32,137 nucleotides of DNA, taken from NCBI GenBank assembly GCA_903848905.1, contig CAINHP010000224.1:1-32137 (forward strand), written 5' to 3'. Below the pieces are notes generated by a model. That model did no database searches. It saw nothing but the letters and a program-made list of their open reading frames with translations, and was not told the DNA's origin. Of this stretch, positions 1-11,219 are shown one piece after another. Both the position numbers and the translations under genes were made by a program. The DNA is from an uncultured Pseudomonadota bacterium. GTDB taxonomy: Bacteria > Pseudomonadota > Gammaproteobacteria > Methylococcales > Methylomonadaceae. Within the stretch, counting starts at the first letter, position 1. Every line of letters begins with the position of its first letter.

Positions 1-624
1 TCCCACGGCTAAAATGGTGAGAGGATGGACAGCTTCATCGATTCGCAATCCTTCAGTGTATGGCCAATGCAAAACAGATTGATTGCGCAAGTTGGGCATA
101 ACGTCGGGTTGCTCTACGGTGGTAAATTTTACAAAATTAGCCGTTGAAAGCGGTTTTGCCATATTGAGTAAATTGACCAACGGAAAACCTACCCAAGGGA
201 CAACCATCGACCAAGCTTCAACACAACGGAAACGGTAAATCCTCTCTTCAAGAGTTTGTTTGCTCAAAATGTCTTCTAAATTAAATTTTCCCGCATTTTC
301 AACTTCACCACTAATCTCAATTGACCATGGGTCAATGACAAGCGGTTGTGCGAGTTTGGTGGAATCTTCTTTGCCGAAACTGAATTCGTAATAATTGGTA
401 TAGTCTTTAACCAACTGTTTAGGCGTTGGCGTAAGTGTTTTAGATGACAGGTCACTTTGCGCAAGAGTTTCCCATTTTGCAGAATCGGTTTTCGCCATAA
501 GTGAATGGCTATTTCCAACCACCGTTGCGGCAAGTAGAGATTTGATGAGTGTACGTCTCTCTTTAAATACTTTCTCATCTGTAATTTCATGGCTTGGAAT
601 CGATTTTGTTGTTTTTATTATCAT
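1..624 (-). CDS. msrP: Protein-methionine-sulfoxide reductase catalytic subunit MsrP (YedY-like molybdoenzyme), partial; C-terminus lies beyond the left edge
   Basis: Reading the reverse complement from ATG at 624..622 gives MIIKTTKSIPSHEITDEKVFKERRTLIKSLLAATVVGNSHSLMAKTDSAKWETLAQSDLSSKTLTPTPKQLVKDYTNYYEFSFGKEDSTKLA...IDPWSIEISGEVENAGKFNLEDIL...EERIYRFRCVEAWSMVVPWVGFPL. It has a twin-Arg-like leader (KERRTLIKSLLAA) and the MsrP molybdopterin-Cys motif YRFRCVEAWSM. No stop before position 1. The ORF track lists only an out-of-frame ORF here. Confidence 0.92.
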   Translation of the reverse strand, partial: MIIKTTKSIPSHEITDEKVFKERRTLIKSLLAATVVGNSHSLMAKTDSAKWETLAQSDLSSKTLTPTPKQLVKDYTNYYEFSFGKEDSTKLAQPLVIDPWSIEISGEVENAGKFNLEDILSKQTLEERIYRFRCVEAWSMVVPWVGFPLVNLLNMAKPLSTANFVKFTTVEQPDVMPNLRNQSVLHWPYTEGLRIDEAVHPLTILAVG

Positions 625-672: not shown

Positions 673-1503
673 TTATTTTTTACCTTTAGGGATTAAACTC
701 CGTATTTTCATGAATTTACGTTCTGTGAGAAAAGCGAGAGAGAAAAGTTGAACAAAATTATCGGCTTCAATTAAGTCTAATCCGATATTAACAGGAACTA
801 ATTCTTTTCGTGTTCCAAAAATACGATCCCAAAAAGCTAACACAATCCCGTAGTTACTATCATGTTCTGACCGAACTTTAGAGTGATGAGTGCGGTGCAA
901 TGAGGGAGTAATGATGTACTGTGACACCATATCTTCATTTTTGACTTTAATATTTGCATGGTGAAAAAATATGAAGAATAACTCGATAATTTCAATAGAT
1001 AAAACTAAATAAGCATTCACACCAATAATGACAACAAAGACGCATTTGTATACAATTTCAAGTAATAAATCAAAAACGTGAAATCGAAAACCGGTGGATA
1101 CATTGAAGCTTTTGTCACTGTGATGAATTTTGTGAAAACGCCATAAAGGTTCAAATTTATGGCTATAATAGTGCCAAACATAAATAGCTAAATCGAAAAA
1201 CGCAAATGCCAGAATCCATTTAATCGGACCATCAGAGAGTCCGCTGAGTAACCCGTAGGTGGAAAACTGTTGTGCAACAAGAAATAAGGATGAAGCTCTA
1301 AGTGTAGTTATAATCACGTTGTTAATGACAAACGCCATGGTGTTTGTCACAAATGATTCTTTATAGACTTTAGATGAGAATGTACGAAGAGGTTTTTTCT
1401 TCTCAAGCATTAGCAAGAAAAAAAAGGCAAGAATTGCCAAACCAAAAAGCACTTCGTTAAAAATCAAGCCACCACTTTTGGCGGCAATTTCTGCTTCGTT
1501 CAT
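673..1503 (-). CDS. Fatty acid hydroxylase / sterol desaturase superfamily integral membrane di-iron protein
   Basis: 276 aa, several hydrophobic segments and clustered histidine motifs HYYSH, HKIHH, FFHHANI, HRTHH typical of the FA_hydroxylase/ERG3 superfamily. Confidence 0.9.
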   Translation of the reverse strand: MNEAEIAAKSGGLIFNEVLFGLAILAFFFLLMLEKKKPLRTFSSKVYKESFVTNTMAFVINNVIITTLRASSLFLVAQQFSTYGLLSGLSDGPIKWILAFAFFDLAIYVWHYYSHKFEPLWRFHKIHHSDKSFNVSTGFRFHVFDLLLEIVYKCVFVVIIGVNAYLVLSIEIIELFFIFFHHANIKVKNEDMVSQYIITPSLHRTHHSKVRSEHDSNYGIVLAFWDRIFGTRKELVPVNIGLDLIEADNFVQLFSLAFLTERKFMKIRSLIPKGKK

Positions 1504-1562: not shown

Positions 1563-2018
1563 TTATTTAGATAACGCCTCAATCAATGAATTGAGTTCTT
1601 TAATTTCGTTATTAGCAACAACATGTTCTGTAATATCGTATTGCACGCCTAAATAATAAATAACGCGATGTTTTTTATCAAATAAGGGCGTTATTTTTAA
1701 GCGATTATGAAATAACGTGCCGTCTTTTCTATAGTTGCGCAACGTGACTTCTACAGATTCGTTCTTTTCCATCGCATCGGAAATGATTTTTCTAGCTTCT
1801 TGATCACGATCATCTCCTTGCAAGAAACGGCAATTGATACCTACAATTTCTTCTTGCGGATAACCGGATAAATTCTCAAATGCTTTATTCGCGTATACAA
1901 TGGGTGTGTCTTCTAAATCGGGATCCGCTAAGGTGACACCATTCACACATTCATCTAAAATCGCAGAAAGTACTTGAGGAATGAACCCACCACCATCTTT
2001 TTCAACAATAAAAGGCAT
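1563..2018 (-). CDS. Short LOV-domain (PAS/LOV) flavin photoreceptor, no fused output domain
   Basis: 151 aa; GINCRFLQGDDRDQ (LOV signature GxNCRFLQ with photoactive Cys63, codon 1832..1830), LRNYRKDGTLFHNRLKITPLFD and YYLGVQYDIT (expected FMN-contacting Asn/Asn/Gln), short C-terminal helix. Confidence 0.93.
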   Translation of the reverse strand: MPFIVEKDGGGFIPQVLSAILDECVNGVTLADPDLEDTPIVYANKAFENLSGYPQEEIVGINCRFLQGDDRDQEARKIISDAMEKNESVEVTLRNYRKDGTLFHNRLKITPLFDKKHRVIYYLGVQYDITEHVVANNEIKELNSLIEALSK

Positions 2019-2064: not shown

Positions 2065-2553
2065 TTATTTTGAATATTTTACGTCAATGAGATTCTTAAT
2101 GTTTTCAACAGTGCTTTCTGCTCCGTCTTCAATAGCGTAACGAATGAGTTTTTGAAATGGCCTCATGAACATTTCCAGTTCCAGCAATTCAAAACGAAAT
2201 GTCAGTCTTGTATTCATCTTTTGATTTTGAGTTTCATTTTCCATCAGGTAGCTTTGCCGATAAGGCGCGCTTATACCTTGACAAATCAAGCTGTTATTAG
2301 GATGGAAATCAATGATTTCAAAAACGGATTCAACATTTTCTCCGTTATCATTTCTAACCTGTTTTGCTTTAGCTCCTAAACATGCTTTATTGGTTTCAGG
2401 TTTGAATTCAACGACTTCAATTGCCCATTTGGTGTAATTTTCAAAAAATTCATTACCCACGTAGGCATAAATATCTTCAATAGGTTTCTCGATCTCAATA
2501 GTGGCTTCGCCAGTTATGGAGTCAGATGAATCAAGTAGAAATTTAATCTGCAT
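2065..2553 (-). CDS. SRPBCC (START/Bet v1-like) family protein
   Basis: 162 aa; EATIEIEKPIEDIYAYVGNEFFENYTKW...VVEF, then FEIIDFHPNNSL...RLTFRFELLE and a C-terminal amphipathic helix, the usual SRPBCC layout. GGAGGA Shine-Dalgarno just upstream of the ATG (2561..2566 on the + strand, complement). Confidence 0.75.
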   Translation of the reverse strand: MQIKFLLDSSDSITGEATIEIEKPIEDIYAYVGNEFFENYTKWAIEVVEFKPETNKACLGAKAKQVRNDNGENVESVFEIIDFHPNNSLICQGISAPYRQSYLMENETQNQKMNTRLTFRFELLELEMFMRPFQKLIRYAIEDGAESTVENIKNLIDVKYSK

Positions 2554-2601
2554 ACTATTTCCTCCTAAATCTAATTACCAAGTTAAACACTAGGTTTTAT
2601 A

Positions 2602-2630
2602 ATTATAATGTCACTCTAAGTGCAATGCAA
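2602..2630 (-). promoter_or_regulatory. Predicted sigma70-type promoter for the SRPBCC-LOV-hydroxylase-msrP cluster
   Basis: Reverse complement reads TTGCAT-(17 nt: TGCACTTAGAGTGACAT)-TATAAT, i.e. -35 at 2630..2625 and a perfect -10 at 2607..2602, about 50 nt upstream of the SRPBCC ATG. Confidence 0.6.
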
Positions 2631-2681
2631 TACTATACTCGATTAACTAAAACATCTACTGTTTTTTAACAATTTAAAAAA

Positions 2682-3098
2682 TTATTTTAGGGGACGATTT
2701 TTTGAGTCTTTATGAATGTGTCCACCAAAGAGGAGGACAGTATCAATAAAGCCCCAAATGACACCGTAGCCATGAGTGAGGATAGTTAAGGCAATTTGGG
2801 CTAGGGCTAATTTGTAAAATCCCAAGTAAAATCGATGCGCACCAATTGCCCCCAAAAATAGACCTAGTAGGGTTGCAATCGTGCGGCTTTTGACTGCTTC
2901 AACAGGTTTCATTGACTCAGCGAATAGGCGTATATTGATTACATTACCGTCATTGACTTCAAAGGTAACTTCATCACCTTGATCAGGTGGTACCGTCGAT
3001 TTCCAGCTATGATTATCGAATTCAAAATAATCGTCTTGGCTTTTTACAATACCTACATTTTTTTCATTGTCGTAAGATTCAATTTGTCCGATAAGCAT
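2682..3098 (-). CDS. TM2 domain membrane protein with an N-terminal cold-shock/OB-like domain
   Basis: N-terminus MLIGQIESYDNEKNVGIVKSQDDYFEFDNHSW...GDEVTFEVNDGNVINIRLF resembles an OB/CSD fold; C-terminus RTIATLLGLFLGAIGAHRFYLGFYKLALAQIALT...GYGVIWGFIDTVLLF is a TM2 domain (GAHRFYLG). Confidence 0.8.
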   Translation of the reverse strand: MLIGQIESYDNEKNVGIVKSQDDYFEFDNHSWKSTVPPDQGDEVTFEVNDGNVINIRLFAESMKPVEAVKSRTIATLLGLFLGAIGAHRFYLGFYKLALAQIALTILTHGYGVIWGFIDTVLLFGGHIHKDSKNRPLK

Positions 3099-9076: not shown

Positions 9077-9607
9077 ATGAAAAATAAAAATATTATCCCA
9101 ACAGACAAAGAGCGCTTTATGCGTGAACATGATTTTATCGTGTCTAAAACTGATTTAACTGGCCGCATTATTTATGGTAATGAAATTTTTATCGAGTTTT
9201 CAGGTTATGAAGAACATGAACTATTAGGGAGTCAACATAACGTTGTTCGCCATCCCGATATGCCACGCTTAGTATTTAAAATGCTGTGGGATTATTTGAC
9301 GGAAGATAAAGAAATTTTTGCTTTTGTAAAAAATATTTCAAAAGATGGGAGTTTTTATTGGGTTTTTACGCATGCTGCACCTATTTTGAATGAAAAAAAG
9401 CAAAAAATCGGTTACACCTCTGTGCGTCGAACGCCAAATCCTAAAGCAATTCCTATTGTTGCCGATCTATACAAGATGATGTTGAATGCTGAAAGACAAG
9501 CGGGCGCGAAAAATGCGATGACGGCTTCTGGCGATGTGTTAAATAAGGTATTACAGGAAAAAGGCGTAACTTATGATGAGCTTATCAATGTTCTTCAAGC
9601 ACTTTAA
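9077..9607 (+). CDS. PAS-domain sensor protein (Aer/CetB-like)
   Basis: TDLTGRIIYGNEIFIEFSGYEEHELLGSQHNVVRHPDMPRLVFKMLWDYL...FAFVKNISKDGSFYWVFTHAAPI resembles the Aer-type PAS (NxxFxxxSGY..EEL.G..HN.VRHPDMP...W..L..G....G.VKNR.K.G..YWV). Confidence 0.88.
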   Translation: MKNKNIIPTDKERFMREHDFIVSKTDLTGRIIYGNEIFIEFSGYEEHELLGSQHNVVRHPDMPRLVFKMLWDYLTEDKEIFAFVKNISKDGSFYWVFTHAAPILNEKKQKIGYTSVRRTPNPKAIPIVADLYKMMLNAERQAGAKNAMTASGDVLNKVLQEKGVTYDELINVLQAL

Positions 9608-11219
9608 AGTCAAAGAATCCATTGCTCAAGCAGCGATGACGTTTCTTTGGAGTGGGTCGTTAATTTACATTTGGATGATCAGTGTCAATTGGCTTATTCC
9701 GGCTTGTTTAACGATAGGGGCGGTAATTGTTGTTTTTATTTGGCAGTTTTCGCGCAAAGATGACAAGGTATTATTGACTCAGTTGCTCAATGCCAGCGAT
9801 GAATGGCGTAAAGGTAAAGTTCATGTGCGCATTACGCAAATAGGGGGTAAAAAAAATGAACTACAGCAATTATCGTGGGCGTTAAATGATTTGATGGATC
9901 AAGTCGAGACGGCTCAAGTAGATATGTATTACTCGATGGCGTATGTGACGTATGGTGATTTTACTCGTCGTAGCTACCCAGCTGGTCTGCACGGTGGTTT
10001 TGCTCAGGCTTCAACGCGACTTAACGCATTAACAAAAGTTTTATCATCGACAACTACTGGCATCAATGAATTGATGCGGGCATTAAATTCAGGTGATTTT
10101 AACAAAACAGTGAATGTGAGTGTGCGAGGGGAATACGGGCACGCTATTGAAAATGCAACTCAAGCGATGCGGACTATGCAAACGCTAATGAATAACATTG
10201 GTGAGGTGATGGGGCGAGTTGCTCAAGGGGATATCAGTGAGCGTGTTGAAGCGACTGCTCAAGGGGACTTTGCGACACTCAAAGAAAATATTAATTTATC
10301 ACTTGATGCGCTTGAAGGGAGTTTGAATGATATTTCACTTGTTTCTACTGCGCTTGCACATGGGGATTTAACGCTTAATATTGAGAAAGAGTACCCTGGA
10401 ACATTTGGCGAAGTGCTTTCGGGAATGAATCGCACGGTTGAAAATTTAAAAGTATTGGTTGGGGAAATTAAAGATTCAAGTGAAATAATTGAAGTAGCGG
10501 CAAAAGAAATTTCGATGGGGAATTTTGATTTATCTAATCGGACGGAGGCGCAGGCGCATAGCTTAGAAGAGACGGCCGCGAATATGTCTGAATTCACCTG
10601 CACAATTGAGCAAAACAGTCAAAATGCCAATCGCGCAAACGAATTAGCCCACGCGTCATCAATGATTGTGCGTAATGGGGTGACAGCGGTTAGTCAAGTT
10701 GTTCAAACGATGGAAGGTATTAATGATTCATCGAGAAAAATTGTTGATATTATCTCGGTGATCGATGGAATTGCGTTTCAAACGAATATTTTGGCGCTTA
10801 ATGCCGCAGTTGAAGCCGCGCGAGCGGGTGAACAAGGTCGAGGTTTTGCGGTAGTTGCAACGGAGGTGCGTAATTTAGCACAACGTGCAGCGGCGGCAGC
10901 AGGTGAGATTAAACATTTGATTGGCGATTCGGTTGATAAAGTTCAAGAGGGAAGTTATCTTGTCGCAAAAGCAGGGAAGACGATGGAGGAAATTTTAAGT
11001 TCTATTCAGAGTGTGACCAATACGATTACCGAAATTACCGTGGCATCCAATGAACAATCATTGGGGATTAATCAAGTGAATGAAGCGCTTCACAATATGG
11101 ATGAAGTCACGCAGCAAAATGCCGCACTGGTTGAGCAGGCAACCTCAGCAGCGCAATCCCTTGAGCAACAAACGCAAAATTTATCTGCAACTATTGCGAA
11201 CTTTAAATTAACATTATAA
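9573..11219 (+). CDS. Methyl-accepting chemotaxis protein with short N-terminal transmembrane anchor and repeated HAMP-like modules
   Basis: Conserved MCP hairpin tip IDGIAFQTNILALNAAVEAARAGEQGRGFAVVATEVRNLAQRAAAAAGEIK; upstream repeats ...LNSGDFNKTVNVSVRGEYGHA..., ...VAQGDISERVEATAQGDFATL..., ...LAHGDLTLNIEKEYPGTFGEV... look like tandem HAMP units. Start overlaps the PAS gene end by about 35 nt. Confidence 0.92.
   Translation: MMSLSMFFKHFKVKESIAQAAMTFLWSGSLIYIWMISVNWLIPACLTIGAVIVVFIWQFSRKDDKVLLTQLLNASDEWRKGKVHVRITQIGGKKNELQQLSWALNDLMDQVETAQVDMYYSMAYVTYGDFTRRSYPAGLHGGFAQASTRLNALTKVLSSTTTGINELMRALNSGDFNKTVNVSVRGEYGHAIENATQAMRTMQTLMNNIGEVMGRVAQGDISERVEATAQGDFATLKENINLSLDALEGSLNDISLVSTALAHGDLTLNIEKEYPGTFGEVLSGMNRTVENLKVLVGEIKDSSEIIEVAAKEISMGNFDLSNRTEAQAHSLEETAANMSEFTCTIEQNSQNANRANELAHASSMIVRNGVTAVSQVVQTMEGINDSSRKIVDIISVIDGIAFQTNILALNAAVEAARAGEQGRGFAVVATEVRNLAQRAAAAAGEIKHLIGDSVDKVQEGSYLVAKAGKTMEEILSSIQSVTNTITEITVASNEQSLGINQVNEALHNMDEVTQQNAALVEQATSAAQSLEQQTQNLSATIANFKLTL

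What the first reader, a model, noticed from the sequence alone, without database searches (positions are those of the whole stretch)
1563..2018. Short LOV photoreceptor with no effector domain
The 151-aa ORF is almost only a LOV core with short N- and C-terminal caps. All hallmark residues appear present (GINCRFLQ Cys63, Asn/Asn in LRNYRKDG...FHN, Gln in LGVQYD), so it should be photoactive. With no fused output, signalling must be by protein-protein interaction, possibly with the adjacent SRPBCC protein.
Basis: partly seen in the sequence, partly recalled or inferred. Interest (0 to 1): 0.6.

Follow-up and report, generated by a model that had tools for sequence, protein, structure and literature searches.

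The report
Methanotroph blue-light sensor with SRPBCC partner
A methane-eating bacterium carries a small stand-alone blue-light sensor whose gene almost always sits directly behind a gene for a small ligand-binding protein, a pairing found repeatedly in methane- and ammonia-oxidising bacteria, which suggests that the two form a light-response module in organisms whose key enzyme is known to be damaged by light.

Summary
In detail: window 1563-2018 (minus strand) encodes a 151-aa short LOV protein with every photochemical residue (C63, N95, N105, Q126) and no effector domain. The host is a Methylococcales methanotroph. Its nearest studied relatives are the Methylocystis short LOVs (McLOV), which are dimeric and photoactive; their partner is unknown. 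New here: the LOV lies in a conserved operon SRPBCC - LOV - fatty-acid hydroxylase - MsrP - MsrQ. In 151 Methylococcales genomes, 78 of 81 such LOVs have the SRPBCC gene directly upstream (median gap 57 bp), and all 71 LOV genomes have it. The pair also recurs in Methylocystis and ammonia oxidisers (SRPBCC in 88 of 100 Nitrosomonadaceae). In 399 Pseudomonadota, only the three genomes with AMO/pMMO have this SRPBCC. The tie is one-sided: SRPBCC also occurs without LOV. The two known short-LOV outputs, class II LitR and an AraC-LOV factor, are absent from this genome. Best reading: a light-switched LOV dimer acting on or with the SRPBCC protein, in an envelope photo-oxidative-stress operon. Photoactivity is very likely; physical partnership is inferred (about 0.5). 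New variant of a known kind; it makes the light response of methane and ammonia oxidisers testable.

The parts
1563..2018 (-). Short LOV protein, 151 aa (C63 adduct cysteine; N95, N105, Q126 flavin contacts; T29 = McLOVr T27; C24 in N-cap turn; R71 and R76 = PpSB1 R61 and R66)
2065..2553 (-). SRPBCC / Polyketide_cyc2-like protein, 162 aa, first gene of the operon and proposed partner of the LOV; helix-grip fold closest to PYR/PYL receptors and other START-like proteins
   Evidence: Pfam PF10604 1.1e-4 in the window copy, all 32 homologues match, best 9.6e-16; AF2 model pLDDT 90.5; Foldseek PDB; adjacency statistics
673..1503 (-). Membrane fatty-acid hydroxylase (sterol desaturase superfamily), 276 aa
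   Evidence: PF04116 6.5e-26; conserved next to LOV
1..624 (-). MsrP, catalytic subunit of the periplasmic methionine sulfoxide reductase; cut off by the end of the contig
   Evidence: PF00174 2.3e-12; intact homologue L010 scores 436 bits against NF003767 cut-off 207
2554..2681 (-). Non-coding stretch upstream of the operon, expected to hold its promoter and leader
   Evidence: between the SRPBCC start and the TM2-protein stop; no promoter mapped

Best explanation
A short LOV blue-light receptor of the McLOV clade works as the sensor of a two-gene module, SRPBCC-LOV. Proposed mechanism: blue light makes the C63-FMN adduct in a constitutive LOV homodimer; [quoted passage not shown] this changes the dimer's binding to the co-transcribed SRPBCC protein, a pocketed helix-grip protein that presumably carries or senses a lipid- or quinone-like ligand; the complex tunes the enzymes made with it (membrane hydroxylase, MsrP/MsrQ) or their supply, as protection of the envelope from photo-oxidation. 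Shown: the sequence chemistry, the operon-like gene order, its conservation and its distribution. Shown by others for close relatives: photocycle and dimerisation. Inferred: co-transcription, the LOV-SRPBCC contact, the ligand, and the protective role.
For: Photochemical residues invariant. McLOVr, about 62% identical, is a dimer with a real LOV photocycle of 80-180 s. 78 of 81 LOVs have the SRPBCC directly upstream on the same strand, and LOV genomes are a strict subset of SRPBCC genomes, 71 of 71, Fisher p 2e-41 with phylogeny ignored. The pair recurs in three groups (gamma methanotrophs, alpha methanotrophs, Nitrosomonadaceae) although the flanking enzymes differ. LOV and SRPBCC trees match, r = 0.855 against at most 0.66 for shuffles within groups, and multi-copy genomes keep matched pairs. 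Known alternative outputs are missing here: only two small MerR proteins, no LitR, no AraC-type HTH. In Pseudomonas mendocina gene proximity correctly pointed to the true short-LOV partner. MsrP/MsrQ, and in relatives photolyase, DUF1499 and RudS next door, fit a light-stress regulon.
Against: No interaction test was possible. SRPBCC homologues work without LOV: LOV-less copies of the same cluster, SRPBCC-hydroxylase and SRPBCC-MsrP-MsrQ operons without LOV, and an SRPBCC-methyltransferase pair in ammonia oxidisers. So the SRPBCC may simply serve the enzymes while the LOV only shares the operon. The second LOV of this genome has no SRPBCC next to it. No natural SRPBCC-LOV fusion was found.
Confidence: 0.5

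Rival explanations
1. The LOV acts on a transcription regulator elsewhere, as PmSB-LOV acts on the repressor PmlR2, and switches on the operon and other light-stress genes; the SRPBCC is only a co-regulated enzyme accessory.
For: The only proven partner of a bacterial short LOV that I found is a class II LitR (PMC9758184). Photolyase, DUF1499 and RudS lie beside the operon in relatives. LOV-AraC fusions arose inside this LOV clade in Methylocystis.
Against: The genome (96% complete) has only two MerR-type proteins, 117 aa next to ihf and 139 aa next to mercury-type genes, neither of them LitR-like, and no AraC-type HTH. No regulator gene is conserved near the pair.
Confidence: 0.28
2. VVD-like competitive dimerisation: the short LOV forms heterodimers with another LOV protein and so tunes it, as proposed for Methylocystis.
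For: Proposed for McLOV and the AraC-LOV factor. The N-cap hinge residues P14, D22 and C24 are kept here. This genome has a second LOV, 69% identical.
Against: No LOV transcription factor was found in this genome, and most genomes of the group have one such LOV only. The model does not explain the SRPBCC link.
Confidence: 0.1
3. The protein is mainly a flavin or redox sensor (C24, FMN redox state) of oxidative stress, and light is incidental.
For: It sits with methionine sulfoxide repair genes. The N-cap cysteine is kept in 126 of 143; in ENV1 a key cysteine links light and oxidative stress.
Against: The photoactive cysteine and all flavin contacts are invariant in 143 sequences, which a purely redox role would not demand. 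17 of 143 members lack C24.
Confidence: 0.08

Closest known systems
Methylocystis short LOV proteins McLOVn/McLOVr (PMC4416707)
   Same: Same LOV clade (98 SH-aLRT), N-cap P/D/C hinge, Thr next to flavin N5 (T29 = McLOVr T27), no effector; M. rosea short homologue is L053
   Different: That paper proposes competitive dimerisation with an AraC-LOV factor, absent here. 'Operon' and 'polyketide' do not occur in its text.
PpSB1-LOV / PmSB-LOV of Pseudomonas with class II LitR (PMC9758184)
   Same: Stand-alone LOV with N-cap and J-alpha, same photochemical residues; best structural match of the model
   Different: Separate clade; V instead of T at position 29 and S instead of C at 24; partner LitR absent here; Pseudomonas-type LOV genomes lack this SRPBCC
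Bacillus YtvA family (NF052652)
   Same: LOV core, E = 1.1e-46
   Different: YtvA has a fused STAS domain (own knowledge); here only 159 of the required 250 bits and about half the profile
START/SRPBCC helix-grip proteins (Polyketide_cyc2, PYR/PYL receptors, COQ10/RatA type)
   Same: Predicted fold of the partner (TM about 0.75 to PYL)
   Different: About 10% sequence identity; a distinct family that, in the phylum sample, occurs only in methane and ammonia oxidisers; ligand unknown

Membership tests
Short LOV photoreceptors | LOV core with adduct Cys and Asn/Asn/Gln flavin contacts | tested here: met
   C63, N95, N105, Q126, also N62, R64, Q67
Short LOV photoreceptors | no fused effector domain | tested here: met
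   only PAS/LOV matches over 151 aa
Short LOV photoreceptors | helical N-cap and/or J-alpha extension | tested here: met
   helices 12-24 and 130-150 in the model, pLDDT 72; PDB alignments span both
Short LOV photoreceptors | flavin binding and reversible 450/390 nm photocycle | not testable with these tools
   shown for close relatives McLOVn/McLOVr in PMC4416707
McLOV clade | monophyly with Methylocystis LOVs; N-cap P/D/C hinge and Thr at McLOVr 27 | tested here: met
McLOV competitive-dimer system | LOV transcription factor in the same genome | tested here: not met
   no AraC-type HTH, no other LOV except the short paralogue
PpSB/PmSB-LOV - class II LitR system | class II LitR regulator adjacent or in the genome | tested here: not met
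   two MerR proteins only, 117 and 139 aa, not LitR
PpSB1-LOV slow cyclers | arginine cluster R54, R61, R66, R70 around FMN phosphate | tested here: inconclusive
   R64, R71, R76 present, R70 equivalent is S80; T29 argues for a fast cycle
YtvA family (NF052652) | curated score of 250 bits | tested here: not met
   159 bits
SRPBCC superfamily (upstream gene) | Polyketide_cyc-type profile and helix-grip fold | tested here: met
   window copy 22.9 bits, below the 27.4 cut-off; all 32 homologues match, best 9.6e-16; fold match
MsrP | NF003767 over curated cut-off | tested here: inconclusive
   homologue L010 436 against 207 bits; the window copy is truncated and was scored only with Pfam

The most novel reading that the evidence does not exclude
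SRPBCC-LOV is a dedicated, so far undescribed light-response module of bacteria with copper membrane monooxygenases: the LOV dimer gates a lipid- or quinone-binding SRPBCC protein by light and so helps cells cope with light inactivation of pMMO/AMO and of the membrane around it.
Probability: 0.3. Interest if true: 0.8.

Novelty: new variant of a known kind. Interest (0 to 1): 0.6.

Why it matters
Only one bacterial short LOV type has a proven partner in the papers I could search (a LitR repressor), and that system is absent here. A second partner type would explain a large group of effector-less LOVs. The module is widespread in ammonia- and methane-oxidising bacteria; light inactivation of ammonia monooxygenase has been known for decades (PMC9797979), yet I found no paper that names a blue-light receptor for it. 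Gene deletion in a cultured methanotroph or Nitrosomonas would test the link directly.

Tried and rejected
Apparent SRPBCC fusions (462, 240 and 705 aa) were long overlapping reading frames in GC-rich genomes, not fusions. Partner by LitR: rejected for this genome. Partner by AraC-LOV: rejected. PDB sequence search for the SRPBCC: nothing significant. A first idea that LOV1 is a slow cycler and LOV2 a fast one, from R61/R66 alone, was dropped: T29/I29 predicts the opposite. A strict rule 'SRPBCC only with AMO/pMMO' was rejected: in one alphaproteobacterial family three of four AMO genomes lack it, and three genomes reached through loci or the family search have it without a detected AMO. A conserved regulator motif upstream of the operon was not found; the leader hairpin of relatives is not in the window. 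Literature searches for LOV with SRPBCC, or short LOV with methanotroph, returned nothing; McLOV was found later.

Full report
WHAT IS THERE. The ORF at 1563-2018 is on the minus strand and encodes 151 aa. It matches PAS/LOV profiles only, and its best PDB relatives are LOV proteins, PpSB1-LOV among them, aligned through both flanking helices. The AF2 model is of moderate confidence (pLDDT 72) but shows N-cap helix, LOV core and J-alpha, and its nearest PDB folds are PpSB1-, PpSB2- and PF5-LOV.

HOST. Relatives at 72-85% identity are Methylococcales (Methylobacter, Methylovulum and others), and the window's own genome holds AMO/pMMO genes (PF02461). It is a small methanotroph genome (2.49 Mb, 96% complete).

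THE OPERON. On the minus strand, SRPBCC (2553-2065), LOV (2018-1563), fatty-acid hydroxylase (1503-673) and MsrP (624 to the contig end) follow each other with gaps of 46-59 bp. Co-transcription is inferred from this spacing. In related genomes the same order continues into MsrQ; MsrP and MsrQ of L010 pass the NCBIfam cut-offs. [quoted passage not shown] Photolyase, DUF1499 and RudS were named by sequence similarity and my own knowledge, not by a curated cut-off.

THE SRPBCC-LOV PAIR. In 151 Methylococcales genomes, 81 LOVs of this family lie in 71 genomes; 78 have an SRPBCC gene directly upstream on the same strand (median gap 57 bp). The three exceptions are one paralogue type, which includes the second LOV of this genome. 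All 71 LOV genomes hold the SRPBCC; two genomes have SRPBCC only, 78 neither. The Fisher p of 2e-41 ignores shared ancestry. The flanking enzymes change between lineages (hydroxylase-MsrP-MsrQ; pyridine nucleotide oxidoreductase plus RatA-like and ABM genes; hydroxylase divergent), but the pair stays. LOV and SRPBCC trees agree (r = 0.855; at most 0.66 when shuffled within groups), and multi-copy genomes keep matched pairs. The SRPBCC can stand without LOV: G058 and G067 keep the cluster without the LOV, some Methylomonadaceae have SRPBCC-hydroxylase or SRPBCC-MsrP-MsrQ copies without LOV, and in ammonia oxidisers 12 of 20 further copies lack LOV, four examined ones lying next to a methyltransferase-like gene. 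So LOV depends on SRPBCC more than SRPBCC on LOV.

DISTRIBUTION. In 399 Pseudomonadota genomes, only three pass the AMO/pMMO cut-off, and the same three are the only ones with this SRPBCC family; leaving out the window's genome, two of two against none of 396 (about 1e-5 by my own arithmetic). In the family Nitrosomonadaceae 88 of 100 genomes have the SRPBCC, and all 20 top-scoring loci there have the LOV directly downstream. Limits: in one alphaproteobacterial family only one of four AMO genomes has it and one SRPBCC genome shows no AMO, and two MAGs with the pair show no AMO. The tie is strong but not strict. All these LOVs form one clade apart from the Pseudomonas type.

MECHANISM. Photoactivity is very likely: McLOV relatives purify with flavin, are dimers and make the 390-nm adduct, recovering in 38-180 s (PMC4416707). 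T29 here equals McLOVr T27, whose change to Ile slows recovery about 100-fold, so LOV1 is probably a fast cycler; R71/R76, equivalents of the PpSB1 arginines that slow recovery (PMC5314338), argue the other way, so the lifetime is open. For the output, two known routes fail in this genome: no LitR and no AraC-type HTH. The SRPBCC is the best candidate partner by gene order, the same kind of evidence that correctly led to PmlR2 in Pseudomonas. Its model (pLDDT 90.5) is a helix-grip fold nearest to PYR/PYL receptors, proteins that signal by ligand-gated binding to another protein (own knowledge). MsrP/MsrQ repair oxidised periplasmic methionines (own knowledge), and ammonia monooxygenase is inactivated by light and must be made anew (PMC9797979). 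Hence the proposed role in photo-oxidative protection. Contact, ligand and role are inference.

VERDICT. A real, almost certainly photoactive short LOV of the known McLOV clade; the new point is its conserved SRPBCC partner gene and operon in methane and ammonia oxidisers, not described in the papers I could search. New variant of a known kind, interest 0.6.

Noticed in passing
G000:C144:9007-9459 (L002:1498-1953, minus): Second short LOV in the same genome (69% identical) without SRPBCC, next to a BLUF-domain protein (L002:576-1355) and a small metal-binding protein (PF16785); I29, Q71 and S76 differ from LOV1, so its photocycle should differ.
   Followed up: partly
L010-L045, about 60 bases before the SRPBCC start: Conserved hairpin GTTGAG-loop-CTCAAC abutting the Shine-Dalgarno site, with covariation (94% of cells paired, four pairs changed on both sides, 0 of 500 shuffles as high on the covariation score); not evident in the window.
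   Followed up: partly
L054:847-2313, L057, L197: AraC-like regulator (488 aa in L054 and L057, 503-aa frame in L197) with a C-terminal LOV of this clade in Methylocystis and a relative; the known McLOV-TF type.
   Followed up: partly
L231, L235, L238, L241: LOV-free SRPBCC paralogue in Nitrosomonadaceae beside a methyltransferase-like gene, a possible clue to the ligand chemistry of the SRPBCC family.
   Followed up: partly
window 9077-11219, plus strand: A 176-aa PAS protein overlapping a 548-aa chemoreceptor-like ORF, resembling an Aer-type redox or oxygen sensor split in two.
   Followed up: no
window 2682-3098, minus: TM2-domain protein with a cold-shock-like N-terminus just upstream of the operon; not conserved next to it in relatives.
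   Followed up: no
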